From Candidatus Omnitrophota bacterium (GTDB lineage Bacteria; Omnitrophota; Gorgyraeia; Gygaellales; Profunditerraquicolaceae), in the NCBI GenBank assembly GCA_028712255.1, contig JAQTQJ010000006.1, forward strand, positions 1-44,812: a stretch of 44,812 bases of DNA, read 5' to 3'. Shown in pieces: positions 25,736-40,837 of this stretch; position 1 is the first letter of the stretch; the number at the start of each line of letters is the position of its first letter. The translations under genes were made by a program, and so were the position numbers. The notes below the pieces were generated by a model that worked only from the letters and a program-made list of their open reading frames with translations, had not been told where the DNA came from and ran no database searches.

Positions 25736-28430
25736 TTGGTGGCATTTAGATACTCAGGAAGCAATTAAGCGATTAGAAACAGATTCAAACAAAGGCCTTT
25801 CTCTCCAGGAAGCAAGGCTTAGATTGAATAAGTACGGGCCAAATCAATTAAAAGAGAAAAAAGGCCGTTCTCCTTTAAGTATTTTTTTTGAACAATTCCA
25901 GGATTTTATTGTTTGGGTTTTGATCGCAGCCGCGTTAGTTTCCGGTTTCTTAAAAGAGTGGGTTGATGCTTTAGCTATAATCGCCATAGTTGTTCTTAAT
26001 GCTATCTTGGGCTTTATCCAGGAATACCGCGCGGAGAAATCTTTAGCCGCCCTAAAAAAACTATCCTCGCCAACTTCTAAAGTCATACGTAGCGGCCAGC
26101 ACAATATTATCCCTTCCGGTGAATTAGTGCCGGGGGATTTAATAGAATTAGAGGCAGGAGATAATATTCCCGCCGATAGCCGCCTCATTTGGCTTACTTC
26201 TAATTTTGGAGTTCAAGAGGCCTCGCTCACCGGAGAATCAACGCCTGTTTTAAAAACAACTCTTGCTTTAGATGAAAAAAAAATCCCATTGGCGGACCGG
26301 GCAAATATGGCCTATATGGGGACATCAATATCCTCCGGCAAAGCAAGGGCGGTAGTGGTTGAAACCGGCATGCAGACTGAGTTAGGTAAGATTGCCGGAA
26401 TGATCCAGGAAATTGAACAGGAATCTACGCCTCTACAGAAAAAGTTAGAGCAATTTGGCAAATGGATTGTCTACCTATGCTTTATTCTGGTAGGTTTAGT
26501 TTTCCTTCTAGAGTGGCTGCGCGGCGGTAAGCTTGTCGATGTATTTTTAACCGCGGTAAGCCTTGCGGTAGCGGCTATTCCAGAAGGCCTGCCGGCAGTA
26601 GTTACTATTGCTTTAGCTTTAGGTGTGCAGAGGATGGTTAAGCGTCATGCCCTCGTCAGAAAACTTCCTTCAGTTGAGACTTTAGGTTGTTCAACTGTAA
26701 TTTGTTCAGATAAGACCGGAACACTGACTAAAAATGAAATGACTGTGCAGGCAATCTACGCCCAAGGCGCTTTATTCAAGGTAACCGGCGTCGGATATGA
26801 ACCAAAAGGCGAATTCCTGCTTGACGGAAAAGGAATTAATATAGGTGATTATCCGGATTTAGTTAAGGCGCTTAACGCGGGTGTTCTTTGTAATGGGGCG
26901 CAATTAGTAAAAGATAACTCAAGTTTTAAGATAGTGGGAGATCCTACAGAAGGGGCAATTCTAACTGCCGCGGGGAAGCTTGGATTTTGGAAAGAGAAAC
27001 TGGAGCAGGAATTTCCTTTTGCGCAAGAGATTCCTTTTGACTCTGAACGTAAAAAAATGACTATTGTGCGCCAAACCCAAAATAACAAGTTTATCGCTTT
27101 TGTTAAGGGGGCGCCCGATGTGCTTCTAAATGATTGCATGAATATTGACGATAAAGGGCAGGCAAGAGGCATAACCAGCGGCGACAGAGGCAGGATTCTG
27201 GAGGTAAACAATGATTTAGCCGATAAGGCTTTGCGCGTATTAGCTGTGGCTTATAGAATTTTTGATATTGCTCCTGATAAATACGAAGCAAAACTAATTG
27301 AAAAAGATCTTACTTTCGCAGGTTTAATCGCCATGATCGACCCTCCTCGGGAAGAAGTTAAAAAGGCAATGATAGAGTGTTCTGAGGCGGGAATAAAAAC
27401 CGTAATGATAACCGGAGACCATAAAAATACCGCGGTAGCCATTGCCAGGGAGCTTGGTTTTTTCAGAGAAGATTCTTTAGCTTTGACTGGAGAGGAGCTG
27501 GATAAATTAAGCGACGATGAACTCTATAGGGAGGTAGAAAGGATTCCGGTTTACGCCCGTGTGTCCCCTGAGCATAAGTTAAGGATAGTGCGTGCCTGGC
27601 GTAAGCGGGGGGAAGTAGTGGCGATGACCGGTGACGGGGTAAATGACGCCCCTGCCGTAAAAGAGGCGGATATCGGCGTTGCCATGGGCATAACCGGAAC
27701 CGATGTTACTAAAGAAGTTTCAGATATGGTTATTACTGATGATAATTTCGCTTCTATAGTTGCTGCTGTTGAAGAAGGAAGAGGCATCTACGATAATATT
27801 AAGAAATTTGTGCATTATCTTTTATCCTGCAATGCCGGAGAGATTTTAGTAATGTTTGTTTCTTCCCTGATAGGTTTCCCTGCTCCGCTTTTGCCTATAC
27901 ATATTCTTTGGATTAATCTGGTTACTGACGGCCTGCCTGCCTTGGCTTTGGGAGTTGATCCGGTTAGCCCGGGTATAATGAAAAGGCCTCCGCGCAAGGC
28001 CAACGAAGCAGTAGTCACTAAACAAAGGGCATACTTGATGCTATGGCAAGGCGCCTTTATTGCCTTTTGTAGTTTATTTGCTTTTAGCCTGGTCTTGTTT
28101 ATCGAAAAGGAGGGCATTGAGCGGGCAAGGACCGCTGCATTTATCGTGCTTGCTTGTTCACAACTATTTCATTCTTTTAATTGCCGGAATATGACTGAAT
28201 CACTTTTTAAGATAGGGATTTTCACTAATAAAAAATTGATACTGGCAACCACAATATCATTTTTCTTGCAGATGGCTGTCGTATATCTGCCCTTTGCCCA
28301 GAAAATATTTAAAACAGAAGCATTAGGGATATTTGACTGGTTTTTAGTGTTGTTAATTTCATCTTTTCCACTTTGGGCAATGGAAATTGTGAAGATTATA
28401 AATAACAAGAAAAAGGTTTATGAAGTTTAA
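25716..28430 (+). CDS. P2-type (Ca2+-like) cation-transporting ATPase
   Basis: A 904-residue P-type ATPase. It has the N-terminal cation ATPase domain, the TM4 ion-binding motif PEGLP at 289-293, the phosphorylation site Asp332 in CSDKTGTLT, the hinge GDGVNDAPAVKEADIGVAMG, and six C-terminal TM segments. PEGL and the full length are P2A (SERCA/PMCA-like), not the CPC-containing copper P1B class, so the cargo is probably Ca2+ or Mn2+ rather than copper. It overlaps the end of the RND gene by 20 bases and is thus part of the copper operon, which is unexpected. Confidence 0.93.
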   Translation: MRDRVNNWWHLDTQEAIKRLETDSNKGLSLQEARLRLNKYGPNQLKEKKGRSPLSIFFEQFQDFIVWVLIAAALVSGFLKEWVDALAIIAIVVLNAILGFIQEYRAEKSLAALKKLSSPTSKVIRSGQHNIIPSGELVPGDLIELEAGDNIPADSRLIWLTSNFGVQEASLTGESTPVLKTTLALDEKKIPLADRANMAYMGTSISSGKARAVVVETGMQTELGKIAGMIQEIEQESTPLQKKLEQFGKWIVYLCFILVGLVFLLEWLRGGKLVDVFLTAVSLAVAAIPEGLPAVVTIALALGVQRMVKRHALVRKLPSVETLGCSTVICSDKTGTLTKNEMTVQAIYAQGALFKVTGVGYEPKGEFLLDGKGINIGDYPDLVKALNAGVLCNGAQLVKDNSSFKIVGDPTEGAILTAAGKLGFWKEKLEQEFPFAQEIPFDSERKKMTIVRQTQNNKFIAFVKGAPDVLLNDCMNIDDKGQARGITSGDRGRILEVNNDLADKALRVLAVAYRIFDIAPDKYEAKLIEKDLTFAGLIAMIDPPREEVKKAMIECSEAGIKTVMITGDHKNTAVAIARELGFFREDSLALTGEELDKLSDDELYREVERIPVYARVSPEHKLRIVRAWRKRGEVVAMTGDGVNDAPAVKEADIGVAMGITGTDVTKEVSDMVITDDNFASIVAAVEEGRGIYDNIKKFVHYLLSCNAGEILVMFVSSLIGFPAPLLPIHILWINLVTDGLPALALGVDPVSPGIMKRPPRKANEAVVTKQRAYLMLWQGAFIAFCSLFAFSLVLFIEKEGIERARTAAFIVLACSQLFHSFNCRNMTESLFKIGIFTNKKLILATTISFFLQMAVVYLPFAQKIFKTEALGIFDWFLVLLISSFPLWAMEIVKIINNKKKVYEV

Positions 28431-28454
28431 TTTTTATAAAGGAGGTGTATCGAT

Positions 28455-28535
28455 ATGGCAAGAAACAATATCCGCTGGCTGATTAGGCCGGCAGCTCATT
28501 GTAAAGAGGGTTGTAGTAGGTTGTCCCGGGCATGA
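28455..28535 (+). CDS. Possible 26-residue Cys-containing small protein
   Basis: A short frame (MARNNIRWLIRPAAHCKEGC..., 26 residues) follows a very strong ribosome site (AAAGGAGGTGT, about 28438-28448). It carries His15, Cys16 and Cys20, a possible metal-binding group, and is rich in Arg. It lies between the P-type ATPase and the YHS protein in the metal-efflux operon. I do not recognise the family. The strong ribosome site is the main support. Confidence 0.45.
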   Translation: MARNNIRWLIRPAAHCKEGCSRLSRA

Positions 28536-28582
28536 CCTTAAACTGCCTGGTATAACGTATACATAAAAAACTGGAGGAATAA

Positions 28583-28942
28583 ATGTTTAGAAAAATATCG
28601 TTAATTCTAATAGTAAGTTTATTTGTTTTTGGAATGAGCAAATTATCTTTTGCTATGATGTGCGGCGAACATAGCGGTAGCCAGCAATTGGCGCAAGTTC
28701 ATAGTGGGCATGAGCATGGCGCGGCAGAAGCAACAGAAGATACGGCAACAAAAGAATCCGTCAATGTTGGCAACAAAATCTGCCCTGTAAGCGGAGAAAA
28801 GATTGATGAGAAATTAAAGGTTACCTACGAATATGAGGGTAAAGTTTATAATTTCTGCTGCTCCGGATGTATCTCGGAATTTAAAAAGGACCCGGATAAA
28901 TACATAAAGAAAGTTAATGAAGAATTGCAAGCTAAACCATAA
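28583..28942 (+). CDS. Secreted YHS-domain metal-binding protein
   Basis: A 119-residue exported protein with a signal peptide (about 1-24, ending LSFA). A His/Cys-containing linker (MMCGEHSG, VHSGHEHG) follows. Residues about 65-112 form a YHS domain (NKICPVSGEKIDEKLKVTYE, then VYNFCCSGCISEFKKDPDKY). YHS domains bind copper and similar ions. The ribosome site is TGGAGG. In this operon it probably captures copper in the periplasm. A broken relative of the same domain lies at 29870. Confidence 0.88.
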   Translation: MFRKISLILIVSLFVFGMSKLSFAMMCGEHSGSQQLAQVHSGHEHGAAEATEDTATKESVNVGNKICPVSGEKIDEKLKVTYEYEGKVYNFCCSGCISEFKKDPDKYIKKVNEELQAKP

Positions 28943-28954
28943 GGGGAAGGTAAA

Positions 28955-29080
28955 TTGAAAAAAATTACATTGGCGCTATGCTTTTTAGTGATTATTATGA
29001 TTTCTGGTTGCGCTACCGAACAAGGAGGCGATGGGGGAAGCTGGGGTAGTTCATCCGGCCATCAAGGCCATCACCACTAG
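28955..29080 (+). CDS. Small His-rich lipoprotein
   Basis: A 41-residue frame starting at TTG 28955, with ribosome site AGGGGAAGG directly upstream. It begins MKKITLALCFLVIIMISGC, a lipoprotein signal with the lipid-anchored Cys at residue 19. The mature part is Gly/Ser-rich and ends in GHQGHHH, a likely metal-binding tail. It lies 12 bases after the YHS gene. Prokaryotic gene finders may miss it because of the TTG start and small size. Confidence 0.7.
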   Translation: MKKITLALCFLVIIMISGCATEQGGDGGSWGSSSGHQGHHH

Positions 29081-29146
29081 ATAGGAATATCGGGCCGCGA
29101 AGCTAGTTTAAAATAGTGAGCAATAGAGATAGAAAGGGATTAATTA

Positions 29147-29857
29147 ATGCGCGCGTATCAGAAAATAAGTTTTATTTTTTTGTTCTTTGTTTGTGCGGTA
29201 TTTTCTTTTCAGGCTTTGTTTGCTTATGATAGCGGCGTTTTGAAGTCGGAGGTATACTCTAAGCTTAAATGCTGCAATTGCTAGGAGTCTTTTGATAAAT
29301 GCGGTTGTCCTGAGGCAAAAGAGATGAGGGCCTATATTGAGGCGCTTTTAGAAAGCGGCGCGAAAAAGGAAGAAATCTTTTATAGGGTGGCTAAAAAATT
29401 TTCACTGAATACGGTATCGGATGCCTAAACTAAGTCGCAAGCCGAAAAAAGGCTGATTAAAGAGGCAGGCAAGAACCGGCCTCAGATTTTTCTGGAGCCC
29501 GCTTCTTTTGATTTTGGGAGCGTAAATAGAAAACAGGGCAAAATTAGCAAGGCGTTTAAATTATTCAATAAAGGCAATTCGCCGTTGATTATCAAAAATC
29601 TTAAAACATCCTGCCCTTGCGCGGCTGCCTCTCTAAAGTTTAAAAAAGATAAAACTGCCTACTTTGGAACTGAAGGGGCTCCTGAAAATTGGCAGATAGA
29701 AATTAATCCCCAAGAAAGCGGCGAATTAGAATTAATAATAGATCTTAGCAGCGAGCACGTAAAAACCGGTAAACTAATTAGGGAGGTTTCAGTATTCAGT
29801 AATGATCCTGTTTATCCGGATGTTAACGCTAGAATTGAGGCAGAAGTAAATGATTAG
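29147..29857 (+). pseudogene. CcmH-like / DUF1573 secreted protein with two in-frame stops
   Basis: One reading frame runs from ATG 29147 to 29857 (237 codons) with only two stops: TAG at 29282 and TAA at 29426. The first part has a signal peptide and a Cys-rich CcmH-like segment (KLKCCNC-stop-ESFDKCGCPEAKEM, then FYRVAKKFSL). The last part, about 29470-29857, is a DUF1573 domain (FDFGSVNRKQGKISKAFKLF, SCPCAAASLKF). Homology continues smoothly across both stops, so this is either a recently inactivated gene or sequence error. Neighbouring genes end normally at TAG and TAA, so a changed genetic code is not an explanation. Confidence 0.75.
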
Positions 29858-29869
29858 GCGAGGGAATGA

Positions 29870-29950
29870 GATAAGATTTATAATTTCTACTGCGTCGAAT
29901 GTATTCCTGATTTTAAAAAGGAGCCGGATAACTTTAAACAAATAAAGGGG
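29870..29950 (+). pseudogene. Remnant of a second YHS domain
   Basis: Read from 29870, the frame encodes DKIYNFYCVECIPDFKKEPD followed by NFKQIK. This matches the C-terminal half of the intact YHS domain at 28583 (KVYNFCCSGCISEFKKDPDKY). A stop codon (TGA, 29867) lies directly upstream in frame, and a palindromic element begins at 29944, so only a fragment is left. Confidence 0.65.
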
Positions 29951-29995
29951 ACGGTTCTCTTAATCGGTTTTATGAAGAAGAGAACCGTCCCCTTT
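29944..29995. repeat. Palindromic element, GGGGACGGTTCT type
   Basis: The arms AAAGGGGACGGTTCTCTT and AAGAGAACCGTCCCCTTT are perfectly complementary around a loop of about 16 bases. It abuts the YHS remnant. Confidence 0.88.
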
Positions 29996-30068
29996 TGTTT
30001 TGAAACCCCTTTCTTTTCCCCCCTTATTTACCCTTGTTTTTGCTTACCTATATAGCATACTTATATAT

Positions 30069-30100
30069 ATGTAGAGACGCAAAATTTTGCGTCTCTACAT
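30069..30100. repeat. Perfect 32-base palindrome upstream of the giant gene
   Basis: ATGTAGAGACGCAAAA is followed immediately by its exact reverse complement. It lies 34 bases before the giant gene's ATG, in the expected leader region. GTAGAGACG-type palindromes are known as dispersed repeats in other bacteria. It may be a mobile repeat, or an operator or attenuator; nothing in the sequence decides this. Confidence 0.85.
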
Positions 30101-30134
30101 AAACAATTTCATTAAAAGACCGGTAGGCAAACCA

Positions 30135-33100
30135 ATGAAGCAATCCAAAACCTTTAAAATTCTTTCCATCCTCCTGTGTATATCTCTTTTATTACAGCAG
30201 ACCGGCTTTGCTCAAGTAGCCAATGCAGAGCTTAACATCGCCGGTCACCTGCAGAACCTGCATTCCAATATCTTTATCGAGAAGTTCCGCCCCCTGCACC
30301 TAAGAAGCCTCTCCTACGACAGCCTGACTAACAACTTCAAGCTCCTCCTAGACAAAGGAGACCAGTTTAAGCAGCTTCAGGGACAGTCCCCTACGGGGAC
30401 AGTCCCTGAACTTCAATCCATCACCCAAGGCCTACTCAACTACTTCTTCATAGGCTTAGCCCTACCCAACGACACCTTCTGGGTCAACCTACGCCCCGAT
30501 TCTCCCAATGACATCATTGACCCACTGCTTGCCCAAACAGAAGTAGGCAAGATACTCTTAGAAGCAGACCTAGAGCTTAAAAAAGACACCGCAGACGCCA
30601 CTAACCCCTCAACTCCTCAAGGCAAAGACTACTGGAATAAGCTCTACACCCGTGCCCAAGAGCTCTATGGCACCCAAAACGTAACCATCCCCACGCTTAC
30701 CCGTCCCTGGATAGTCCCGGATGAGATCATCATTCGTGAATCAATAGATTCAGCTTATGTTTACAAAGCCACCCTTAAAGTAATGCTAGAACAAGACTAC
30801 CTAAAAGACAATACCACCTACTCCTTTAAAGACGACCGAGAAAAACAACTCAATGAATACTCTGCTCAACTCCTAAGAGAAGAGATCATCCCTAACCTCA
30901 TTAAACAAATCAACAACGCTAAACGCTATGCACCACTCAGACAGGTTTACTACTCCTTAATTCTAGCCCAATGGTTCAAAGCACGCTTCATGTCATTGGA
31001 GCAGGGTCAAACCCACTCCGTGTCATTGCGAGGAGCTGCTAAACAACAAGTCGGCGACGAAGCAATCTCAAACCTCATCAACTCCAAAAACCTCACCAAC
31101 CTTAAATCCAAAATCCCCTACTCCGTAGCTACCTACTTCAATGCCTACAAGGAGAACTTTACTAAAGGTCAATACAACCTCCAGGAACCAATCACTACTC
31201 CTTATGGTCAAACCATCAGGAGTTATTTTTCGGGAGGGATATCTAGTCTTATGAGTTCTCCTCAGTTATCTGAGGAATTAACCAGGCAAATGGGAGCAGC
31301 GGGTAATAGTTCAGTTATTCCGGTTGCCCAACCTCTAACTATGGGTAACCATGACTTGGGAGTTAAAGTTGATAGTGACGATACAGTGCAGATTGAGGCC
31401 CAAGGCGCGGGGGAGAGTACTCCGAGCACAACTTCTGCTGTAGCACAAACAACAGGAGTGTTTCCAAATTCTACTGATCAAACCCAGATAAGAGGAATGG
31501 GTCCATTAAAAGATAAGACACAAGAAGAAATTAGAGAACTGGTTGATTCAGGGCAGGCTACTGTAGTTGAGCAAGGCGGCCAGTTATTCGCGGTGCCACG
31601 CATTGCCGGTGGTGACGGCAGGCAGGATGAAATTAGGGCGAAAACATTAAAGACTACCAAGGCAAAGAGGGAAAAAGTAGGAAAAACTATTCCAGGAATA
31701 CCTTTAAAATCACAGAATGAATATAACCGCGACGTCGATCTTAAAGAAAAGTTTCTAAAGAAACAGGATATGGTTGATCGTTTTATTGCTCCTGGGTTTG
31801 AAGGCTTCGAGAAATTTCAGCAGCTATATAACGAGGTACGTAGCGTCATAGACCGTTTGTTAATCGCTCAGGGGCTGAATCCACAAGAGTTTCAGTTTTT
31901 CCTCGCAGATACGGTCAGCCCCAATGCATATGTCGTGAATTATTACAATGCTATTGTCGTAAATTTAGGGCTGATTCGCATGCTGACGGAATATTCCCGA
32001 GCCAATAATATTGATGTAACGCAAGATGCATTGGCTTGGGTTCTGTCTCATGAAATTTTGCATATCGTACAGAACCGTCGCGAAATTGATGAAGGGCGTG
32101 TTGATGAAAAGAAGGGATTAGTCGACCGGCATGCGGAAGATAGAGGGAAAGAGTATCAAAGTGATTTGTTGGCGTTGTGGTTGATGGATCGCGGCGGTTT
32201 TTCAGTCAGATCAGCACCGCACGTTCTTGCCGGTATTGATCATTGGCTGAGAGCCCGCGGCGAGCGTGATACCGTCTGGGGTACCCATCCACAAATAGAA
32301 GAGCGTTTAAGAAAGTTGGAGCATCAAATTTTGACTTATCACTGGCAAAATCAGGATGTTCCAGCCACTACGTTGAATTCTGTCTCTATTGTTCAACAAA
32401 GAACGCGGTTCAGAGAATTTCAAGAACAAGTTATTAATGTCACAAGCGCATCTGGCCTTATTTCCTTATTGAATCAGGCAAGGTCTATTGAAGAGTTGCA
32501 TTTTGCAATGCTTATTGGTTTTGAGGTTTTGCCTGATGTTGAAAAGCTATCTCAGAGCCAGGTTCAGATAGTGTTTGAACAGCGGACAAGAGAGTTTGCC
32601 GGTGAAGATGATGCTAGAAAAGTTTTGTTTGAATATATGAAAAATGAAATTTATGTGATGTTGGGGTGGATGACAGAGCCAAGCCTGGATACTTTTAGAC
32701 GTTTAGGCGAACAATTATCTGTTGAAACAATTCTTCGTATTTATGAATTGGGAGTTCCGAATATCTTCTCTTTATCGATTAATGTCGATAAGTTGCAGGA
32801 AAATAAACGTCATGAACAAGGAGAAGCTGTTCTTTCGCGTCTTCGTCACGCTGTGTATTCGCTAAACGGCCAATCGCGCGCAAGCGACCGATTTAAAATG
32901 TATGCTAGCGGTTTCTTATACGGATTGTATACAAGAATGATCAATGATGCCAAGCAAGGGACATTGAGCTTGGAGCAAGCCCGAAGATTTCTTACCGATT
33001 TGGTAAATATGCAAGAATCGCAGGGATTTTTTGAAGGATATTTATTTACTACGCCGTTAAATGGTATGGCCAACGCTTTGAGTTCATCAAGAGTCTATCG

Positions 33101-36100
33101 AAGCCAGATGCAACCGGAAGACATCCAACTGCTGCTTAGGGTTTATGAAATTTTAGGCACCAAGGTTAATTATGTGCTACACGCAGACGCGCTAGCCAAG
33201 AGTTTATACGAACTTGCCCAGGAAGTTCCATCGGATGCAAAAAAAGAGCTAATGGATTGGCTTCTACGCCGGAGTGATGGCTGGAATTCATTAAGAGCCG
33301 AGTTCATTAAGTTGGATATAAAAGCTGTGTTTGAGAAAGGACAAAGCATTGTTTTTCAGGGAAGCAGGATGGAATATTTGGAAAACCTATTGGCCAATGA
33401 AAACATCGTTCGAAACATGCAAGATGTGCTAAAGCTTTTTATCGAGGCTGTCCACAAAAAAACCAACAATATTTCGGCGGAAGATCTTGTTGTTATGCAC
33501 CAGAAGGTATTTTTAAAATTAAAGCAAGAGCATATTAACGATGATCTAGGTATTTTTCGCGATCTTTGGTTTATGGCGCGTGAAAATACTCAGATGTTTG
33601 CTGGTGATGTTTTTGAAAGAGTCCTTTCCGAAAATATACCTACGGAGTTGCGGTCTTTACTTGAAAGAACACGCCGTGAACTAAGGCCGGTTTTTTATAT
33701 TATTGCTTTAGGAGCCATCCCGTCAGGTGAAGATTTGAGAGATTTTATTTTCGGTGCGTTACAAGTCAGGGAAAGAGAGGATGATGATTTTTTCTCAAAT
33801 GTTCAAATTAAACAGATGATTAATTCCCTTCCAGTCAGACGAGGTACTCCTAATGAGGTTTTGACTTCTGTAGAAGAAAGGTACCAGTCTCTTGAGCCTG
33901 AAGATCGGCCTAGAGTTCATGAGTTATGGAATAGGATTAATCCTAAGAGGAGAATCGAAAATGTTAACGATAATGAGTTCGGGTTGATCAAGGCGTTACT
34001 GGAGCATTATCGTAAATCGATTGGACAAGTGCTATCCGAAAAAGACTCGACGCCTGAACAACAGGAAGAAGCTTTTGGGAAATACGCGGCACCATTTTAT
34101 TTACAAGCGCTGTTTGTAGAGCTTGGCTACGGTATAAGGCTCAAAGAAGATGATGTCAGATTTGGAAGCAGTGCTTGGCAGGTGTTTGCCGGAGATATAG
34201 CTCGTAAGGGAGTGTTGGAGGAATCCGATTATGAAAAACTCGCCGCTAAACAACGTCCCAGGAACGCGGTACGCTTTATGAAAGAGGAAGTATCCTTTGA
34301 TGATTTTATGCGGTTGTTTGATTTTATCGCGTTGCTTCCTGCTAACTATGAAGAAGCTGTTGATACGGTGGTTCGAGGGATACCGCCTTCAGTATTCCGT
34401 AATTTTGTTCTCCATGTACTTTTTGTTAACCGGGTGCTTATTAATCAGACTGGATATACTGGTGATAATAACGCGATTTTTGATATTAAAAGGATGGAAA
34501 AGCATATTGCTGGGCTATCGGCGGTTGAGAGAGCAAATGTTCTCTCAGCAATAGCCGCTATTATGCCTCATTTTGTCCATGATGAGGTAATGGAAGAGTC
34601 TAACAAAATAACCGTGGCGGCTTATTGGAGAGATCGATATTCCAAAAATGCTCCAAAATTAGATGAGGCTGCTATTCGACGAGATCATGATCAAGAGATC
34701 GGCAATTATAACGATATGATGTATTCCGTTCCCGGAGGGCCTGTTGCTCAGTTGTATATTTTTGTCAGTCGTTTGGCTGATAGTGAAATTCAGGCTGCTG
34801 TAGAATCTGTTGAGTTATCTTTGGCCGCAAAGCGAGAGATTATCGAGAAATACTACTTTCAGTCATCTTCGGCAAGAGATAGGTGGATTAAGGCGGCAAT
34901 TCAATCTGAAGGTAGAAATAAGTCGGTTGAAGAAATTGAGAAATTGCTGGGGATGATCAACAGCCGTGAATTACGGGACAATTTGGCTTTAAGTGCTTTT
35001 GATCAATATCGCACAGAACATTCCGAGGAATTTGGTAATTTGAGTGATGTGCTTGAAAAGATTAAGAGATTCTTTCCGGAAGCTTCGTTGATCAGGGATG
35101 ATGTTCTCTCGGAAACAGCGCAATTTTTGGCTAAGACACCTGAGCAATATGAAAAAGTACGAGCATTATATCTTGACCCTTTTAAGAAAACTAAAGATTT
35201 GGATTTAAAAGAGACAGCGCGTACGGCGATGAATGCTGATGCATTTCGCGCGTGGACAAAGAATCGCAGCCCCGCGGAAAAATCGCACTTTCTTCTTTGG
35301 CTCATGGGTATTACAGATGAAAAGCCATTTTTCCTTGTTGATTTCGAATATAATTTTCACGTTAATGCAGACAGCATGCGTGAAGACTTTGGACGCAGGC
35401 AAAGTAAATATTATCCGTTGGCAGGCCAGTCATCGCAACGCGAGGCTCTTGAGCCGTTTCTGTATGGCGAGAAGGGTATCTTTAATGACTCAAAGGCCAT
35501 GTCAAATTTACTGGAGGGTATGTTTAATTTCTTGATTAAAGATGGCCCAAACAAGAGTATTCTAAAGAAGGTCTTCGATAAGGTTTTTGAAAAGGCAGAT
35601 CAATCTCGCAGAGAAGAAATTTTTATGGCACTGGTTTGGACTTTGTCATTGCAGCGTGGCGAACTAAGTAATCAGCAGAACATAGAGTTGGACAGACAAG
35701 AGGCTCGTGCCGTACGTATGTTTCTGGAGTCATTGGGATTAGTCGGACGCCAATTGGCACAAGTTTTGGCTCGATCTTTGTGGGTTACGCAAATTATGCG
35801 GGATGAATTGTCTTTGGTGCAGGATAGCGCTGCCCGTATGGATAAGGGTGTTGTTTTTGATATGTTAGAAAAGTTTGGTTTGAGCGGACAATTTGAGAGT
35901 ATTGAGGAGCCATTGGGAAGCGCAAAGATTGCCGGCGTTTACCGTGCCAAAATGCGTGATGGCAGAGTTGTGGCGATCAAGGTTAAGCGAGCGGAAGTCG
36001 ATAAAACCATTGAAGCGGACATGAAGTTTTTGAGGGATGTTTTCGATGGTGATCTTCGCTTGGCTTTTATGGCTGAAGGAATTGTTATACCGGATAATTT

Positions 36101-38399
36101 CATAACACAGATAGAAGAGGGGTTTCGGCAGGAGCTAGATTTCGAGCACGAGGCTAAGAATACGGCGGAGTTAGGGGCGCGAGTTCAGCGAACCGTATTT
36201 AAGAAGATCAAGGAGTTTTCTTTGCGGAAATTATTTGGCGACACTAAATTGGGAGAGGTTCATGGGGATTATGAATTTTATGTTCCGCAGATAATTGAAG
36301 TCATAAACAATTCAGCAATTGTTATGGAATATATTGAGGGTATTAAACTGTCGAATGAAGCACGTATGGCTGAGTCAGGATTTGATCAGAAGGATATTGA
36401 ATTGGCAGTAGCCAACGAATTATTGCGGGAGATTTTCTACGAAGGTTTTTACCACGGCGATCCTCACTTGGGAAATATTCTTGTGCAGAAGGGAAAGAAC
36501 GGTCGAGTTCGCATTGTTTTGATTGATGCGGGAGCTTCTTTTGGACTTAACAAGAGTAATCGGCAGTTGCTGGGAAAGTTAATGGTGGCCGTCCGGGATG
36601 GCCAAAAAGATGTTTTGGAAGATATTGTTCAACGGCTTGGAGGGGTATTAAATGAAGATATCCGAAGCGAACTGACCAAACAGGTATTGGAAGCAAACAT
36701 TAGCGTTGGACAAAAATTGTTGTGGTTCTTTCATATTCTTGAGAAGAATCGCATTGTAATACCTAATGAATTATTAAACATTATGCGTTTTTTTGCAACG
36801 GGCCAGGCTTTGTTTGATCATGGGAACTCTAACTCATTAACAACTCGTGAAACGCAGGAAGATTTTGTTCAAGCTGATCAGTTGAATAATGCTATTAATC
36901 AGGGGCAAGACGAGAATTCAGCTTCTTCATCAACAGTAGGGCAGGCACCCGGAGCTGATTCATCCCCCCAAATCACCCCGCCCTCATTCGGCTCAACCGG
37001 TGAATATGAGGTTATGCAGTCAGTTATATTGGATGCATACACTAAACTTACCTCAGGCCAGATTACTGCGCGGAGAGCAGCTTCGATGATAATAAATGCT
37101 TTAATGAATTTAACTGAGCCAGAGTATATTGTAAATCTTCAAACTGCCATAGATATCTTAAGACAGGCAGGCGATTCTAAATTTGCGCCTATAATAAAGA
37201 TATTAGAAAGCTACGTTGGTAAAACTGACCACGCAGGCCTAGAGGTAGAAATTAAGCTAACCGCAGGCACCAGGGTATACCATAAGTCAATTAACAAGGC
37301 AGGCAAGATAACTAGCTATAGAGATGATATGATAAGCATACTATTTGACGGTGAAAAAAAACCGCGCAACTTTGATAAAAAATATTTGTTACCCAATCTG
37401 GAAATTATTCTGTCCGTAACCAGCAGTCCGGATGATGATTTGGTATTGGTTGATGCTTTGATTAGTGATGATGCAAAATTAGTTGATAAAGCGTTAGCCC
37501 AAATAGATAAACTGGGAATCCCTAGACAAGTTCATCAAATAGTTGAAAAAGCTCTTAGTTTAAGAGGCCTCCGTTTGGAAATAAGAGATGATTTATATTT
37601 GGCAATACAGGTTATAGATGAAAAAGGTAATGTTGTTGGAGAATTGGGTTTAAATACCGGTGCTGATGAATCCGGTAATCCGTTGCTTACTATCCCGGTT
37701 AATTCACTTTACTCAAACGAGCTAAGGGGGAAAAGAATTTTTCCGCTGCTCTACCGATGGATGGTAACAGAACCCGAGTTTATTAGTCGATTTGGTGGAT
37801 GGAAATTTCAAATAAATACTACTACTGAATCAGCGGCTAAATCCTGGCAAAGGAGTGGCTTATCGGAGGTTAGAATAATTCCTTATGGTGATGGTTATTA
37901 TAAGGTAGAGGGTAAATTTCCCGATTGGAAGAATAGTCATTTGATATCATCAGAAAAAGATGGTGCTAATAATTTGATCGTAGATTCTTCATCCGCAACT
38001 GAATTAATAGTGGAATCAGGATCGGCTCCCGGCGGCATCGACTTCCGCTTCCTGCCTATTGTTACTCAGTCTATGGATAGCCTCAAAGCAGGGATAAGGA
38101 ACATGCCCCAAAGCACCCTACAGCGCATCAACCTAACCCAAGAGTGGTCAGACATCGAGCGTCTAGTTAATTCAGGAATTACCCCATCAACAGAACGCCT
38201 CAAGGAGTACCTTGCCGCCAGTTGCTTTAAAGGTAACCTGGATAAGCAAGATACCCAAAGAATACTCTCTTGTATATCAGAGATCCTTAGGATGCAAGAA
38301 GAAACCTGCTGTTTAACCGATCCAACCCTAAAAGACATATTAGTAGTGTTAGGTTCAGGTAGAAGTGGAGAGGAATTAAGGGTAGTATTTAGAAGGTGA
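30135..38399 (+). CDS. Giant secreted multidomain protein with M48-like protease and UbiB/ABC1-like kinase domains
   Basis: A 2754-residue protein with an N-terminal signal peptide (about 1-27, KILSILLCISLLLQQTGFAQ). Residues about 30-420 form an N-terminal module I associate with giant Omnitrophota proteins. A Ser/Thr/Gln linker follows (about 426-452). An M48-like zinc protease comes next: His639-Glu-Ile-Leu-His643, Glu673 and Asp677 in EYQSDLLALWL, and THPQIEERL at 717. A long helical region leads to a UbiB/ABC1-like kinase (about 1870-2230): ATP-site Lys1949 (VAIKVKR), QELDFEHEA, YHGDPHLGNIL with Asp2109 and Asn2114, and Asp2131-Ala-Gly in place of DFG. A linker (about 2239-2287), two unrecognised domains and the tail GGIDFRFLPI end it. 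The ATG at 30135 is preferred over TTG 30087, which lies inside a palindrome. Confidence 0.85.
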   Translation: MKQSKTFKILSILLCISLLLQQTGFAQVANAELNIAGHLQNLHSNIFIEKFRPLHLRSLSYDSLTNNFKLLLDKGDQFKQLQGQSPTGTVPELQSITQGLLNYFFIGLALPNDTFWVNLRPDSPNDIIDPLLAQTEVGKILLEADLELKKDTADATNPSTPQGKDYWNKLYTRAQELYGTQNVTIPTLTRPWIVPDEIIIRESIDSAYVYKATLKVMLEQDYLKDNTTYSFKDDREKQLNEYSAQLLREEIIPNLIKQINNAKRYAPLRQVYYSLILAQWFKARFMSLEQGQTHSVSLRGAAKQQVGDEAISNLINSKNLTNLKSKIPYSVATYFNAYKENFTKGQYNLQEPITTPYGQTIRSYFSGGISSLMSSPQLSEELTRQMGAAGNSSVIPVAQPLTMGNHDLGVKVDSDDTVQIEAQGAGESTPSTTSAVAQTTGVFPNSTDQTQIRGMGPLKDKTQEEIRELVDSGQATVVEQGGQLFAVPRIAGGDGRQDEIRAKTLKTTKAKREKVGKTIPGIPLKSQNEYNRDVDLKEKFLKKQDMVDRFIAPGFEGFEKFQQLYNEVRSVIDRLLIAQGLNPQEFQFFLADTVSPNAYVVNYYNAIVVNLGLIRMLTEYSRANNIDVTQDALAWVLSHEILHIVQNRREIDEGRVDEKKGLVDRHAEDRGKEYQSDLLALWLMDRGGFSVRSAPHVLAGIDHWLRARGERDTVWGTHPQIEERLRKLEHQILTYHWQNQDVPATTLNSVSIVQQRTRFREFQEQVINVTSASGLISLLNQARSIEELHFAMLIGFEVLPDVEKLSQSQVQIVFEQRTREFAGEDDARKVLFEYMKNEIYVMLGWMTEPSLDTFRRLGEQLSVETILRIYELGVPNIFSLSINVDKLQENKRHEQGEAVLSRLRHAVYSLNGQSRASDRFKMYASGFLYGLYTRMINDAKQGTLSLEQARRFLTDLVNMQESQGFFEGYLFTTPLNGMANALSSSRVYRSQMQPEDIQLLLRVYEILGTKVNYVLHADALAKSLYELAQEVPSDAKKELMDWLLRRSDGWNSLRAEFIKLDIKAVFEKGQSIVFQGSRMEYLENLLANENIVRNMQDVLKLFIEAVHKKTNNISAEDLVVMHQKVFLKLKQEHINDDLGIFRDLWFMARENTQMFAGDVFERVLSENIPTELRSLLERTRRELRPVFYIIALGAIPSGEDLRDFIFGALQVREREDDDFFSNVQIKQMINSLPVRRGTPNEVLTSVEERYQSLEPEDRPRVHELWNRINPKRRIENVNDNEFGLIKALLEHYRKSIGQVLSEKDSTPEQQEEAFGKYAAPFYLQALFVELGYGIRLKEDDVRFGSSAWQVFAGDIARKGVLEESDYEKLAAKQRPRNAVRFMKEEVSFDDFMRLFDFIALLPANYEEAVDTVVRGIPPSVFRNFVLHVLFVNRVLINQTGYTGDNNAIFDIKRMEKHIAGLSAVERANVLSAIAAIMPHFVHDEVMEESNKITVAAYWRDRYSKNAPKLDEAAIRRDHDQEIGNYNDMMYSVPGGPVAQLYIFVSRLADSEIQAAVESVELSLAAKREIIEKYYFQSSSARDRWIKAAIQSEGRNKSVEEIEKLLGMINSRELRDNLALSAFDQYRTEHSEEFGNLSDVLEKIKRFFPEASLIRDDVLSETAQFLAKTPEQYEKVRALYLDPFKKTKDLDLKETARTAMNADAFRAWTKNRSPAEKSHFLLWLMGITDEKPFFLVDFEYNFHVNADSMREDFGRRQSKYYPLAGQSSQREALEPFLYGEKGIFNDSKAMSNLLEGMFNFLIKDGPNKSILKKVFDKVFEKADQSRREEIFMALVWTLSLQRGELSNQQNIELDRQEARAVRMFLESLGLVGRQLAQVLARSLWVTQIMRDELSLVQDSAARMDKGVVFDMLEKFGLSGQFESIEEPLGSAKIAGVYRAKMRDGRVVAIKVKRAEVDKTIEADMKFLRDVFDGDLRLAFMAEGIVIPDNFITQIEEGFRQELDFEHEAKNTAELGARVQRTVFKKIKEFSLRKLFGDTKLGEVHGDYEFYVPQIIEVINNSAIVMEYIEGIKLSNEARMAESGFDQKDIELAVANELLREIFYEGFYHGDPHLGNILVQKGKNGRVRIVLIDAGASFGLNKSNRQLLGKLMVAVRDGQKDVLEDIVQRLGGVLNEDIRSELTKQVLEANISVGQKLLWFFHILEKNRIVIPNELLNIMRFFATGQALFDHGNSNSLTTRETQEDFVQADQLNNAINQGQDENSASSSTVGQAPGADSSPQITPPSFGSTGEYEVMQSVILDAYTKLTSGQITARRAASMIINALMNLTEPEYIVNLQTAIDILRQAGDSKFAPIIKILESYVGKTDHAGLEVEIKLTAGTRVYHKSINKAGKITSYRDDMISILFDGEKKPRNFDKKYLLPNLEIILSVTSSPDDDLVLVDALISDDAKLVDKALAQIDKLGIPRQVHQIVEKALSLRGLRLEIRDDLYLAIQVIDEKGNVVGELGLNTGADESGNPLLTIPVNSLYSNELRGKRIFPLLYRWMVTEPEFISRFGGWKFQINTTTESAAKSWQRSGLSEVRIIPYGDGYYKVEGKFPDWKNSHLISSEKDGANNLIVDSSSATELIVESGSAPGGIDFRFLPIVTQSMDSLKAGIRNMPQSTLQRINLTQEWSDIERLVNSGITPSTERLKEYLAASCFKGNLDKQDTQRILSCISEILRMQEETCCLTDPTLKDILVVLGSGRSGEELRVVFRR
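30376..30410. repeat. In-frame palindrome within the giant gene (GGGACAGTCCC type)
   Basis: TTCAGGGACAGTCCCC, TAC and GGGGACAGTCCCTGAA form a 35-base near-perfect palindrome that is read through in frame as LQGQSPTGTVPELQ. It interrupts the N-terminal module. Confidence 0.75.
31020..31069. repeat. In-frame GTCATTGCGAGG-type repeat within the giant gene
   Basis: GTGTCATTGCGAGGAG at the left and GACGAAGCAATCTC at the right are the ends of the intergenic repeat seen at 12894. The segment is translated in frame as VSLRGAAKQQVGDEAISN. Confidence 0.75.
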
Positions 38400-38424
38400 C
38401 AGTCACAAAAAGCGTGACAGTCAC
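38396..38424. repeat. Inverted repeat GTGACAGTCAC...GTGACAGTCAC
   Basis: Two GTGACAGTCAC units flank AAAAAGC. The unit is the exact reverse complement of 17452-17480. It overlaps the stop codon of the giant gene. Confidence 0.85.
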
Positions 38425-38433
38425 CTTTATGTT

Positions 38434-38541
38434 GGATTCCCCAGACTATTGACACAGTCTGTTCGCGGGAATGACGGGATTAGTAATGGGATTGTTTTGT
38501 CGTCCGCCACTGAATCAATGGCGGACTCTTCACAATGACAC
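38434..38541. repeat. Cluster of repeat fragments after the giant gene
   Basis: 38434-38476 resembles the GGATTCCCC...GGGAATGAC repeat also seen at 17421 and 19632. 38501-38525 is the GTCCGCCACT...ATGGCGGAC hairpin also present at 17161-17186, followed by CACAATGACAC. No gene is visible in 38400-38700. Confidence 0.65.
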
Positions 38542-38572
38542 GATAGAGTAATGTTTCACTATGACATAGATT

Positions 38573-38636
38573 AAAAAGGGTGCTTTCCTTTAAAGCCTAC
38601 CGGCATAAAGGTTCCTCCAAAAAAGCGCCCTTTTTT
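38573..38636 (+). terminator. Probable terminator between the giant gene and the propeller gene
   Basis: Outer arms AAAAAGGGTGCTTT and AAAAGCGCCCTTTTTT pair, with a second inner stem (CCTTTA/TAAAGG) and a T-run after the stem. This gives a structured rho-independent terminator. The inner loop makes it longer than a simple one. Confidence 0.6.
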
Positions 38637-38661
38637 ATTTGTAAAAATAATTAGTTAGATT

Positions 38662-38701
38662 TTTTGCCGCCTTACGTCAATTGCCTTAGGAGGTGGCAAA
38701 A
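38662..38701 (+). promoter_or_regulatory. Hairpin that may mask the ribosome site of the propeller gene
   Basis: TTTTGCCGCCT (38662-38672) is complementary at 10 of 11 positions to AGGTGGCAAAA (38691-38701), with the remaining pair G-U. The 3' arm contains part of the ribosome site AGGAGGT (38688-38694) and reaches the A of the start codon. Folding would hide the start. Confidence 0.5.
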
Positions 38702-40269
38702 TGTATAGGATAGTTATTGGTTTTGCAATGATTTGGGTATGTTTTTTGGTTGCTAATCTTAGGGCGCAGGAATTGAATTGGCAGGATATAAGTTGTGGAA
38801 ACCATAATGCAGGGGTAATTTTAGTCAATCAAGCTGACAATAACACTATCTTTATAGGGATTCCTGGAAGTATATTAAAAAGCGAGGATGCGGGAAAAAG
38901 CTGGCGCAGCGTATTGACGTTAAGAGGAGCAATGCGTAACATCAATTGTTTATCGGTAAATTCGATTAATTACAACTGTGTTTACGCAGCTACCGATAAT
39001 GGTTTATACCGAAGTAATAATTTGGGCGACCGCTGGGAAAGAATCTTTCAGGGCAAAAATAACTTAGAGAAGCAATGCACAAGCATTATTGGCACATTGA
39101 ATACGTTATTTGTTGGGACAAAAGCCGGGCTTTTTATCAGCAGGGATAACGGACGCAGTTGGAATAAAGAAAGGGGTGAAATTGATAAGAACGCTATACT
39201 CAACATTGATTTTGTTTCTAAGAAAGATATGATTATTTATCTAGCCGCAGTAAATGGGATATTTAAATCTTTAGATAGTGGCAGGAGTTGGGAAAGGATT
39301 TTCTCAAGTTATTCCCGCGAAAACAACAAAGTTGGTTCTGTTGATCAAGATGTGGATGTGCCTGAGAATTCTTCTGATATTCGTTTTGTAAAGGCTGGTA
39401 TTAATAATATAAACTTGGTATATTTATCTAGCGCAAAAGGGGTTTATAAAAGTTTGGACCAAGGCAGGAACTGGCAAAAGTTACCCGAATATGGCCTGTT
39501 AAACCGGGATGTCAAAGTAGTTTGCTTATCGGATAATTCTCAAGTTTTGGCACTTAGCGAATCAGGAATTTTTCTTTATGGCGATGAGCGCTGGGCGGAG
39601 GTTTCTTTTGGTTTACTGGCAGGAAAACTAAAATCTTTTGCGTTGGATGATAAAGGAAATATTTACGCAGCAGGAGAAAGAGGGGTATTTAATGCCAAGA
39701 TGAGTAACCATGTAAATTTTGGCACGCAGGTTTTTTTACAGGAATACCTTAAGAATGAGCCCAAAATTAAAGAAGTACAGGATGCGGCAATAAAATACGC
39801 CGAAGTGAGCCCGGAAAAAATATCCCAATGGAGAAAAAAAGCGGCCAAGAAAGCTTTATTGCCGCAGGTAAACGTAGGAGTGGACCGGAATTCAACTGAT
39901 TTATGGCACTGGGAAGGCGGCTCAACCACTAGAAGCGACGACGATACACTACGCAGAGGCCGCGATGCCGTTGATTGGGATGTTTCATTAAGCTGGGATT
40001 TAAGCAATGTAGTTTGGAATGACGCTCAAACTAGTATTGACGTGCGTTCAAAGCTTATGGTGGAACTGCGTAATGATATTTTAGACCAGGTAAATAAGCT
40101 CTATTTTGAGCGCTTAAGGGTAAAATCAGAGTTGGATAATCTAGCTATTGAAGATAGGAGCAAAAGATTTGATAAGCAGTTAAAACTTCAGGAGTTGACC
40201 GCTTCACTTGATTCCCTTACAGCCGGGTATTACTCAGAGCAGCTTCGAAAACTGGCGACTCAAGTATAA
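38701..40269 (+). CDS. Secreted Asp-box beta-propeller protein with outer-membrane-protein-like C-terminus
   Basis: A 522-residue protein with a signal peptide (about 1-22, ending LRAQ). Residues about 25-340 contain at least five Asp-box (BNR/Ycf48-like) repeats, such as LKSEDAGKSW, YRSNNLGDRW, FISRDNGRSW, FKSLDSGRSW and YKSLDQGRNW, so a beta-propeller is expected. Residues about 355-522 are different. They contain SPEKISQWRKKAAKKALLPQ, a strand-like segment (VDWDVSLSWDLSNVVWND) and long helices (LRNDILDQVNKLYFERLRVK), resembling outer-membrane channel proteins. A surface or envelope role is likely, but the function is unknown. A hairpin covers its ribosome site. Confidence 0.75.
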   Translation: MYRIVIGFAMIWVCFLVANLRAQELNWQDISCGNHNAGVILVNQADNNTIFIGIPGSILKSEDAGKSWRSVLTLRGAMRNINCLSVNSINYNCVYAATDNGLYRSNNLGDRWERIFQGKNNLEKQCTSIIGTLNTLFVGTKAGLFISRDNGRSWNKERGEIDKNAILNIDFVSKKDMIIYLAAVNGIFKSLDSGRSWERIFSSYSRENNKVGSVDQDVDVPENSSDIRFVKAGINNINLVYLSSAKGVYKSLDQGRNWQKLPEYGLLNRDVKVVCLSDNSQVLALSESGIFLYGDERWAEVSFGLLAGKLKSFALDDKGNIYAAGERGVFNAKMSNHVNFGTQVFLQEYLKNEPKIKEVQDAAIKYAEVSPEKISQWRKKAAKKALLPQVNVGVDRNSTDLWHWEGGSTTRSDDDTLRRGRDAVDWDVSLSWDLSNVVWNDAQTSIDVRSKLMVELRNDILDQVNKLYFERLRVKSELDNLAIEDRSKRFDKQLKLQELTASLDSLTAGYYSEQLRKLATQV

Positions 40270-40337
40270 GAAAATAATGGGACCGTTTCTATTTTTACCT
40301 GTTTTGAGCTGAAAAATAGAAACGGTCCCATTATTTC
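40270..40337. repeat. Palindromic element, GGGACCGTTTCT type
   Basis: Long complementary arms (ATAATGGGACCGTTTCTATT and its complement) flank a loop of about 14 bases. It starts on the base after the stop codon of the propeller gene. Confidence 0.88.
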
Positions 40338-40440
40338 AAAAATGGCTGTCCCCAATTTTTCTTGCAATTATCTTATCTTTATGATAATTTAAATAAACCT
40401 GCCAATATTATTAACCCTATTAATGTAAAGGATTAAGGTT

Positions 40441-40761
40441 ATGAGTACGCAACATTTTACGGATACAAATTTTAAAAAAGAGGTTTTGGAATCTGAAATA
40501 CCGGTTTTAGTGGATTTTTGGGCTGCTTGGTGTTCTCCTTGTAAGCAAATCGCTCCAATCATTGATGAGTTAGCTAAAGAGTATGCGGGAAAGATTAAAA
40601 TTGGTAAAGTTGATGTTGATAACAATTCTAAGATTCCTACCCAGTACGGGATAATGTCAATACCGACGATAATATTTTTTAAACAAGGTAAAGTTATGGG
40701 CCAGCTTGTCGGAGTAGCCAGTAAGTCTGATCTGAAGCGCAAGATCGAAGAAAACCTTTAA
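40441..40761 (+). CDS. trxA: Thioredoxin
   Basis: A 106-residue thioredoxin with active site WCSPCK (Cys31, Cys34); the usual motif is WCGPCK, and Ser at this place may shift its redox potential. VDFWAAWC and the cis-proline segment SIPTIIFF are present. It has no signal peptide and is cytoplasmic. It could supply electrons to the APS reductase at 5182, which belongs to the thioredoxin-dependent class. The next gene, 75 bases on, belongs to the acetate pathway. Confidence 0.95.
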   Translation: MSTQHFTDTNFKKEVLESEIPVLVDFWAAWCSPCKQIAPIIDELAKEYAGKIKIGKVDVDNNSKIPTQYGIMSIPTIIFFKQGKVMGQLVGVASKSDLKRKIEENL

Positions 40762-40765
40762 TGTG

Positions 40766-40837
40766 TCCCGCACCTTCTTTATATCTAAAGTTTGAAGGTG
40801 TAGGGCTTAATGAATAAATAAAAGAAAAGGTGTGGGA
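40766..40837 (+). promoter_or_regulatory. Alternative-hairpin leader ahead of the Pta regulatory gene
   Basis: TCCCGCACCTT (40766-40776) can pair with the nearby GAAGGTGTAGGG (40794-40805) or with AAGGTGTGGGA (40827-40837), which covers the ribosome site and touches the ATG at 40837. The two pairings exclude one another. This could regulate translation; no known riboswitch class is recognised. Confidence 0.4.

What the first reader, a model, noticed from the sequence alone, without database searches (positions are those of the whole stretch)
30135..38399. Exported giant protein combining an M48-like protease with a UbiB-like kinase
The protein has a signal peptide, an intact HEILH metalloprotease site and an ABC1-type kinase-like domain about 1300 residues later. 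UbiB-like kinases are normally cytoplasmic or membrane-bound enzymes; one inside an exported 2754-residue protein is unusual. It may modify or process targets outside the cytoplasm, possibly in other cells.
Basis: partly seen in the sequence, partly recalled or inferred. Interest (0 to 1): 0.75.

Follow-up and report, generated by a model that had tools for sequence, protein, structure and literature searches.

The report
Two-ended exported carrier with swappable cargo
The giant protein really does carry a protease and a kinase-like domain behind a secretion signal, but it is one member of a large, apparently undescribed family of exported Omnitrophota proteins that share the same two ends and swap the enzymes in the middle, often for glycolytic enzymes.

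Summary
In detail: an intact 2754-residue ORF with a Sec-type signal peptide, an M48-like protease with its zinc ligands, and an ABC1/UbiB-type kinase-like domain about 1,270 residues later. The pair is not the main story. The first ~370 and last ~122 residues belong to two new conserved modules that bracket unrelated cargo in 82 distinct proteins here. The N-module occurs in 137 of 384 Omnitrophota genomes, with up to about 70 copies per genome (about 9% of one genome). The most frequent recognisable cargo is glycolytic enzymes (PGK, TIM, GAPDH, iPGM, enolase, PPDK), beside normal cytosolic copies where checked. Cargo is about five-fold depleted in cysteine, as expected outside the cytoplasm. 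The N-module recurs (E down to 6e-62) in six exported, membrane-tailed Streptomyces proteins attached to nuclease- or deaminase-like domains. A GG[IV]D[FLM]-type motif borders the modules in both phyla. Neither module matches Pfam or a PDB fold. Best reading: an exported two-ended carrier with exchangeable cargo, this copy loaded with protease plus kinase. Catalytic activity, final location and target are unproven.

The parts
30135..38399 (+). whole gene (P0001, 2754 aa plus stop)
   Evidence: start with conserved signal peptide across family
30135..30227 (+). Sec-type signal peptide, residues 1-31 (MKQSKTFKILSILLCISLLLQQTGFAQVANA)
   Evidence: hydrophobic core 7-25 and no other TM-like stretch; Q22, F25, Q27 nearly invariant in the family
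30213..31238 (+). N-module, residues ~27-368, ending IRSYFSGG
   Evidence: shared with 137 of 384 Omnitrophota genomes and six Streptomyces proteins; AF2 pLDDT 86; no PDB fold match
31830..32414 (+). M48-like metalloprotease domain, residues ~566-760
   Evidence: Pfam PF01435 42.3 bits, cut-off 20.3; conserved in G013, G026
32049..32063 (+). HEILH zinc-binding motif (residues 639-643)
32151..32165 (+). EYQSD third-ligand motif (residues 673-677)
32415..35654 (+). long middle region without Pfam match, residues ~761-1840, part of it conserved in G013 and G026
35883..36608 (+). ABC1/UbiB-type kinase-like domain, residues 1917-2158
   Evidence: Pfam PF03109 140.6 bits, cut-off 22.9; PDB relatives COQ8A/COQ8B
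37452..37934 (+). possible GNAT-like acetyltransferase segment, residues ~2440-2600 (by eye only, no profile match)
   Evidence: sequence inspection; not confirmed
38031..38396 (+). C-module, residues 2633-2754, beginning GGIDFR
   Evidence: shared tail in 82 members; AF2 pLDDT 89.5, helical; no PDB fold match

Best explanation
The protein is a Sec-exported, two-ended carrier. A signal peptide and a conserved N-module lead, exchangeable cargo follows, and a conserved C-module that begins at a GGIDF motif closes the chain. The ends probably act as a matched pair for export, sorting or anchoring, while the cargo does the work outside the cytoplasm: at the cell envelope, on the surface, or on or in a neighbouring cell. 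In this copy the cargo is an M48-like protease, a long unassigned region and an ABC1-type kinase-like domain, so its likely job is proteolysis plus nucleotide-dependent modification or binding of extracytoplasmic targets. Shown by computation here: domain identity, shared ends, exchangeable middle, co-variation of the ends, cysteine depletion, an exported module homologue in Streptomyces. Inferred: the role of the ends, catalytic activity, and the target.
For: Own-genome paralogue of 5594 aa shares only the ends. 47 of 53 complete N-module ORFs also end with the C-module, and 5 of the 6 others are followed directly by a C-module-only ORF. 82 distinct members with cargo of 359-5107 aa; N- and C-module distances correlate (Spearman 0.61, 0 of 999 permutations). 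Cargo cysteine 0.21% against 1.15% in control ORFs and 1.16% in native TIM/PGK; none in 2252 cargo residues of P0001. Streptomyces module proteins have signal-type N-termini, C-terminal hydrophobic/basic tails, three with LAxTG. GGID-type motif at the tail in 73 of 88 and 19 of 20 members against about 0.1 expected. Catalytic motifs of both P0001 domains largely intact.
Against: The C-module is not cysteine-poor (1.6%), odd for an exported segment. An ABC1 kinase needs ATP, scarce outside cells. UbiB KxGQ motif is lost. Much cargo elsewhere in the family is decayed, so activity of any one cargo cannot be assumed. Co-variation of the ends could reflect common descent of whole genes. No export or anchoring machinery was identified.
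Confidence: 0.6

Rival explanations
1. Cargo-excision device: the GG motifs at the end of the N-module (SGG) and at the start of the C-module (GGIDF) are processing sites, so the middle is released as a free protein after export, like a pro-toxin or polyprotein. The module itself or an unknown protease makes the cuts.
For: The final GG of the module is at least 90% conserved in Omnitrophota, G144 and Streptomyces; GGID-type motifs flank cargo in Omnitrophota and flank the module in Streptomyces; flexible S/P-rich linker before the second motif.
Against: No cleavage data; the module has no recognised protease fold; GG motifs could simply be structural turns; the residue after the first GG varies.
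Confidence: 0.3
2. Interbacterial or predatory effector family: the carrier delivers cargo to or into prey or partner cells, where cytosolic-type enzymes, proteases and kinases act on the target's metabolism and proteins.
For: Same module carries nuclease-like (D..ExK) or deaminase-like (HSE..CxxC) domains in Streptomyces; Omnitrophota predation and giant proteins with effector domains are described (PMC10066038, PMC12419801); cytosolic-type cargo would find its cofactors only in a cytosol.
Against: No named toxin family among Omnitrophota cargo in the Pfam tallies; no immunity gene identified; the Streptomyces cargo assignments rest on motifs only; no translocation device identified.
Confidence: 0.25
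3. Surface coat or adhesin scaffold: captured enzyme domains are mostly decayed and serve as folded, cysteine-poor building blocks or ligand binders; the protease and kinase of P0001 are pseudoenzymes or binders.
For: Many TIM/PGK cargo copies lack catalytic parts; giant proteins of this phylum have been proposed as adhesins or coats (PMC10066038); KxGQ lost in the kinase.
Against: Zinc ligands of M48 and K/D/D kinase residues are retained in P0001 and its G013 relative; TIM in L072, L134, L188 and PGK in L055 look intact; no repeats or known adhesion domains in P0001.
Confidence: 0.25
4. Not exported: the N-terminal hydrophobic stretch is a membrane anchor and the protein works in the cytoplasm or at the inner membrane, as M48 and UbiB relatives usually do.
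For: UbiB relatives are normally cytoplasmic or membrane-bound; ATP and metabolites are in the cytosol; C-module is not cysteine-poor.
Against: Signal-type cleavage sites, GFAQ nearly invariant; five-fold cysteine depletion of cargo; Streptomyces module proteins with a topology that puts the module outside.
Confidence: 0.08

Closest known systems
Giant ORFs of Omnitrophota (Seymour et al. 2023, PMC10066038)
   Same: Very long, apparently exported proteins in the same phylum, with few annotated domains
   Different: Described as poorly conserved and without a shared architecture; many family members here are 800-3000 aa and share two end modules and a GGID motif
Polymorphic toxin systems (Zhang et al. 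2012, PMC3482391)
   Same: Constant trafficking part joined to highly variable domains; in Streptomyces the same module sits beside nuclease- or deaminase-like domains
   Different: Omnitrophota cargo lies between two constant ends, and is mostly enzymes of metabolism; no recognised toxin or immunity gene
ABC1/UbiB/COQ8 atypical kinases (PF03109, TIGR01982)
   Same: Kinase-like domain with lysine, HGDPHxGN and ID-G motifs; sequence match to COQ8A/B
   Different: Lies in an exported giant protein; KxGQ lost; far below the UbiB equivalog cut-off
M48 peptidases (PF01435)
   Same: HExxH plus E-Y-x-S-D ligand motif
   Different: No membrane helices of its own; embedded behind the N-module
LPXTG / GlyGly-CTERM / PEP-CTERM type C-terminal sorting signals
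   Same: Conserved C-terminal tail that begins with a short motif after a flexible linker
   Different: The P0001 tail is a 122-aa helical domain with no transmembrane helix or basic end; no CTERM model matched

Membership tests
ABC1/UbiB kinase-like family | Profile match over the curated cut-off of PF03109 | tested here: met
   140.6 bits against 22.9
ABC1/UbiB kinase-like family | Catalytic lysine, HGDPHxGN and ID-G motifs | tested here: met
   K1949, 2107-2114, 2129-2133
ABC1/UbiB kinase-like family | KxGQ motif | tested here: not met
   QLAQ at about 1873-1876; KIAQ in the G013 relative
UbiB proper (TIGR01982 equivalog) | Score over equivalog cut-off | tested here: not met
   142.5 against 487.55
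M48 peptidases | Profile match over cut-off with HExxH and third ligand | tested here: met
   42.3 bits against 20.3; HEILH 639-643, EYQSD 673-677
M48 peptidases | Proteolytic activity | not testable with these tools
   needs purified protein
Sec-exported proteins | Signal peptide with n-, h- and c-region | tested here: met
   and family conservation; no dedicated predictor available
Two-ended GGID carrier family (defined here) | N-module at the start, C-module at the end | tested here: met
Polymorphic toxins | Constant trafficking region with variable domains in paralogues | tested here: met
Polymorphic toxins | Known toxin domain in the variable part | tested here: not met
   none in P0001; none named as toxin in the family tallies shown
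Polymorphic toxins | Adjacent immunity gene | not tested
   the next gene (38701-40269) was read but not tested
Sortase/rhombosortase-type C-terminal signals | Motif followed by transmembrane helix and basic tail | tested here: not met
   no TM-like stretch near the C-terminus of P0001; Streptomyces homologues do have one

The most novel reading that the evidence does not exclude
A previously undescribed export and sorting system in which cargo placed between the N-module and a GGID-type tail is exported, and perhaps released at paired GG motifs. Omnitrophota would use it to place a set of glycolytic enzymes, a protease-kinase fusion and other cytosolic-type enzymes outside the cell or in partner cells, and Streptomyces would use the same module for membrane- or wall-anchored nuclease- or deaminase-like proteins.
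Probability: 0.25. Interest if true: 0.9.

Novelty: new variant of a known kind. Interest (0 to 1): 0.72.

Why it matters
Omnitrophota giant proteins have been hard to interpret because they appear poorly conserved. Two conserved end modules give a handle: they let one find, count and classify hundreds of these proteins and give a testable idea of how they are exported. That glycolytic enzymes form the most frequent recognised cargo, with cysteines removed, is unexpected and bears on how these uncultured, suspected predatory bacteria deal with their surroundings or other cells. The link to Streptomyces offers culturable organisms in which the module can be studied.

Tried and rejected
PDB sequence search with the N-module gave nothing (best E 0.25); the C-module gave one hit to a designed PPR protein at E 1e-5 with no stretch passing on its own, taken as a helical-repeat artefact. 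Foldseek gave no PDB match at E<=0.001 for either module. The idea that the kinase is a relocated housekeeping UbiB was rejected because no free-standing UbiB was found. Homology of the kinase and middle of P0001 with the contig-4 paralogue was tested with hhalign and not found; only the M48 part showed a weak match. Rfam: nothing in 28000-41000; promoter and terminator scans gave no excess over shuffles. Mobile elements: no phage match; two viral-contig matches that look like Omnitrophota fragments. An NCBIfam scan of the modules alone failed on a frame error and was not repeated. The Streptomyces cargo gave no meaningful Pfam and no PDB match, so nuclease and deaminase are motif readings only.

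Full report
OBSERVATION. The ORF at 30135-38399 is intact and encodes 2754 aa. Pfam finds a Peptidase_M48 match from residue 566 (42.3 bits, cut-off 20.3) and an ABC1 match at 1917-2158 (140.6 bits, cut-off 22.9). Solved relatives of the second domain are COQ8A/COQ8B and bacterial ABC1 proteins. Metalloprotease ligands (HEILH 639-643, EYQSD 673-677) and kinase motifs (K1949, HGDPHLGN 2107-2114, LIDAG 2129-2133) are present; the UbiB KxGQ motif reads QLAQ, and the UbiB equivalog model is far below its cut-off. The N-terminus has a positively charged start, a hydrophobic core and cleavage-type sites, and there is no other transmembrane-like stretch.

WHERE IT COMES FROM. The window is the first 44.8 kb of a 115.9-kb contig of a 1.7-Mb genome in 37 contigs. 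Named relatives of the N-module are almost all MAGs labelled Candidatus Omnitrophota or Omnitrophica, a few only 'bacterium'; one is labelled Thermodesulfovibrionia, possibly misbinned.

THE ENDS ARE A FAMILY. A search of the own genome found a second giant, a 5594-aa ORF on contig 4, that shares only the first ~460 residues (69%) and the last ~138 (79%) with P0001. In relatives the same pattern recurs: conserved first ~370 residues, conserved last ~125, unrelated middle. Of 53 complete N-module ORFs in the named loci, 47 also end with the C-module; five of the six exceptions are followed at once by an ORF with only the C-module, in another frame. Across 82 distinct members the C-module ends 0-16 aa from the C-terminus (one at 61), cargo runs from 359 to 5107 aa, and N-module and C-module distances correlate (Spearman 0.61, none of 999 permutations). 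Shared ancestry of whole genes would also give such a correlation.

DISTRIBUTION. The N-module profile matches 137 of 384 Omnitrophota genomes, all listed matches lying in the window's own class. An order-level relative (G036) has 27 N-module and 24 C-module matches. A class-level relative (G144) has 72 N-module matches, fragments included, in ORFs that total about 77,500 aa, about 9% of its 2.6 Mb. In G144 the C-module profile finds nothing, but 19 of 20 members read have a different ~60-aa tail that again begins with GG[IV]D[FL]. The motif GG[IVL]D[FLM] stands 40-180 aa from the C-terminus in 73 of 88 members from the window's order and neighbours, with 0.1 expected from composition.

CARGO. 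Pfam scans of about 109 members show the most frequent recognised theme to be glycolysis and gluconeogenesis: PGK (at least 7 members), TIM (5), iPGM (3), PPDK (3), enolase (2), GAPDH (2), PGM/PMM (2), FBPase (1); several co-occur in one protein. Others are methyltransferases, GNAT acetyltransferases, metallophosphatases, M48 and M23 peptidases, TPR/HEAT repeats and a DnaJ domain. In 13 of 14 genomes checked, normal-length TIM and PGK genes are present as well. Cargo copies are 26-50% identical to the native ones; some keep catalytic motifs (TIM in L072, L134, L188; PGK in L055), others are clearly decayed.

EXPORT. Cargo contains 0.21% cysteine over 104,006 aa and the N-module 0.12%, against 1.15% in control ORFs and 1.16% in native TIM and PGK; P0001 has none in 2252 cargo residues. 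The controls are ORFs of the same loci, not all verified genes, but the native TIM/PGK comparison does not depend on that. Loss of cysteine from captured cytosolic enzymes is what one expects outside the cytoplasm (established knowledge, inference here). The C-module does not show it (1.6%), which remains unexplained.

STREPTOMYCES LINK. A tblastn search of plasmids found the N-module on six large Streptomyces plasmids. With the profile the E-values run from 6e-62 to 6e-37. These proteins have an N-terminal signal-type sequence, variable cargo, the module bracketed by GG[IV]D[FL] on both sides, and a C-terminal hydrophobic plus basic tail, three with a LAxTG sortase-type signal. Their cargo carries an invariant D...ExK pattern in three proteins or an HSE...CxxC pattern in two, which suggests nuclease and deaminase folds; neither Pfam nor PDB sequence search confirms this. 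Twenty-six module positions, among them the final GG, are the same residue in at least 90% of each of the three groups. This places the module outside the cytoplasm in a second phylum, again next to variable cargo.

STRUCTURE. AlphaFold2 models are confident (N-module pLDDT 86, pTM 0.80; C-module pLDDT 89.5, pTM 0.79), and Foldseek finds no PDB match at E<=0.001. No Pfam family matched either module of P0001. Both look like new domain families.

THE PROTEASE-KINASE COMBINATION. It is rare. A relative (G013, a MAG with 6% estimated contamination) has it split between two adjacent ORFs, and a truncated contig (G026) shows the end of the N-module, M48 and part of the middle. ABC1 matches in the own genome and 38 relatives lie only in large open frames (1370 aa and up), never in a free-standing UbiB gene. 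So the kinase is not a displaced housekeeping enzyme.

MECHANISM. The simplest model that covers this is an exported carrier with matched ends and exchangeable cargo. Shown by computation: the ends, the exchange, the co-variation, the cysteine signature, the Streptomyces topology. Inferred: what the ends do, whether cargo is cut out at the GG motifs, whether P0001's domains are active, and where they act. Predation or attachment to partner cells is plausible from the literature on this phylum (PMC10066038, PMC12419801) but is not shown for this protein.

NOVELTY. Giant proteins of Omnitrophota are known; PMC10066038 describes most of those in one class as poorly conserved with few annotated domains. 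In the papers searched here I found no description of the shared end modules, the GGID motif, glycolytic cargo or the Streptomyces link. A preprint on giant genes (West-Roberts 2023, cited in PMC12057145) was not available to read, so absence from the literature is not established.

Noticed in passing
window 30071-30098: Perfect 28-bp palindrome GTAGAGACGCAAAATTTTGCGTCTCTAC about 36 bp before the start codon; one other near copy in the genome (contig 12, 2 mismatches).
   Followed up: partly
window 38395-38430: GGTGACAGTCAC inverted repeat directly at and after the stop codon.
   Followed up: no
L190 1090-5571 (-) and L191 347-5047 (+): A second leader family (MF[AS]QFPKK..FSK..SG...SYAALG..DKLR) is fused to decayed TIM and PGK in 1493- and 1566-aa proteins, so exported glycolytic remnants are not limited to one leader.
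   Followed up: partly
L153, L097, L096, L142, L113: Five gene pairs with the N-module in one ORF and the C-module in the next, out-of-frame ORF; some near homopolymer runs. Frameshift, assembly error or real split not resolved.
   Followed up: partly
C-module, residues 2633-2754 of P0001 and relatives: The C-module has ordinary cysteine content (1.6%) while N-module and cargo avoid cysteine; the ~60-aa tails of G144 have almost none. Unexplained.
   Followed up: partly
L225 3866-5350: A PrsW-type intramembrane protease gene lies just upstream of the Streptomyces module gene; PrsW domains are listed as releasing peptidases of polymorphic toxins (PMC3482391). Not seen beside the other annotated copies.
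   Followed up: no
G000 contig 4, 50596-67371 (L004 1591-18375, minus): The own-genome paralogue (5594 aa) carries an M48 match, TPR matches, a kinase-like HSDFHIGNL motif, a second HExxH (HELGH) and, by eye, GHKL-ATPase-like segments.
   Followed up: partly
G036:C33 around 24536-25594: A PGK copy sits inside an 18,421-aa open frame.
   Followed up: no
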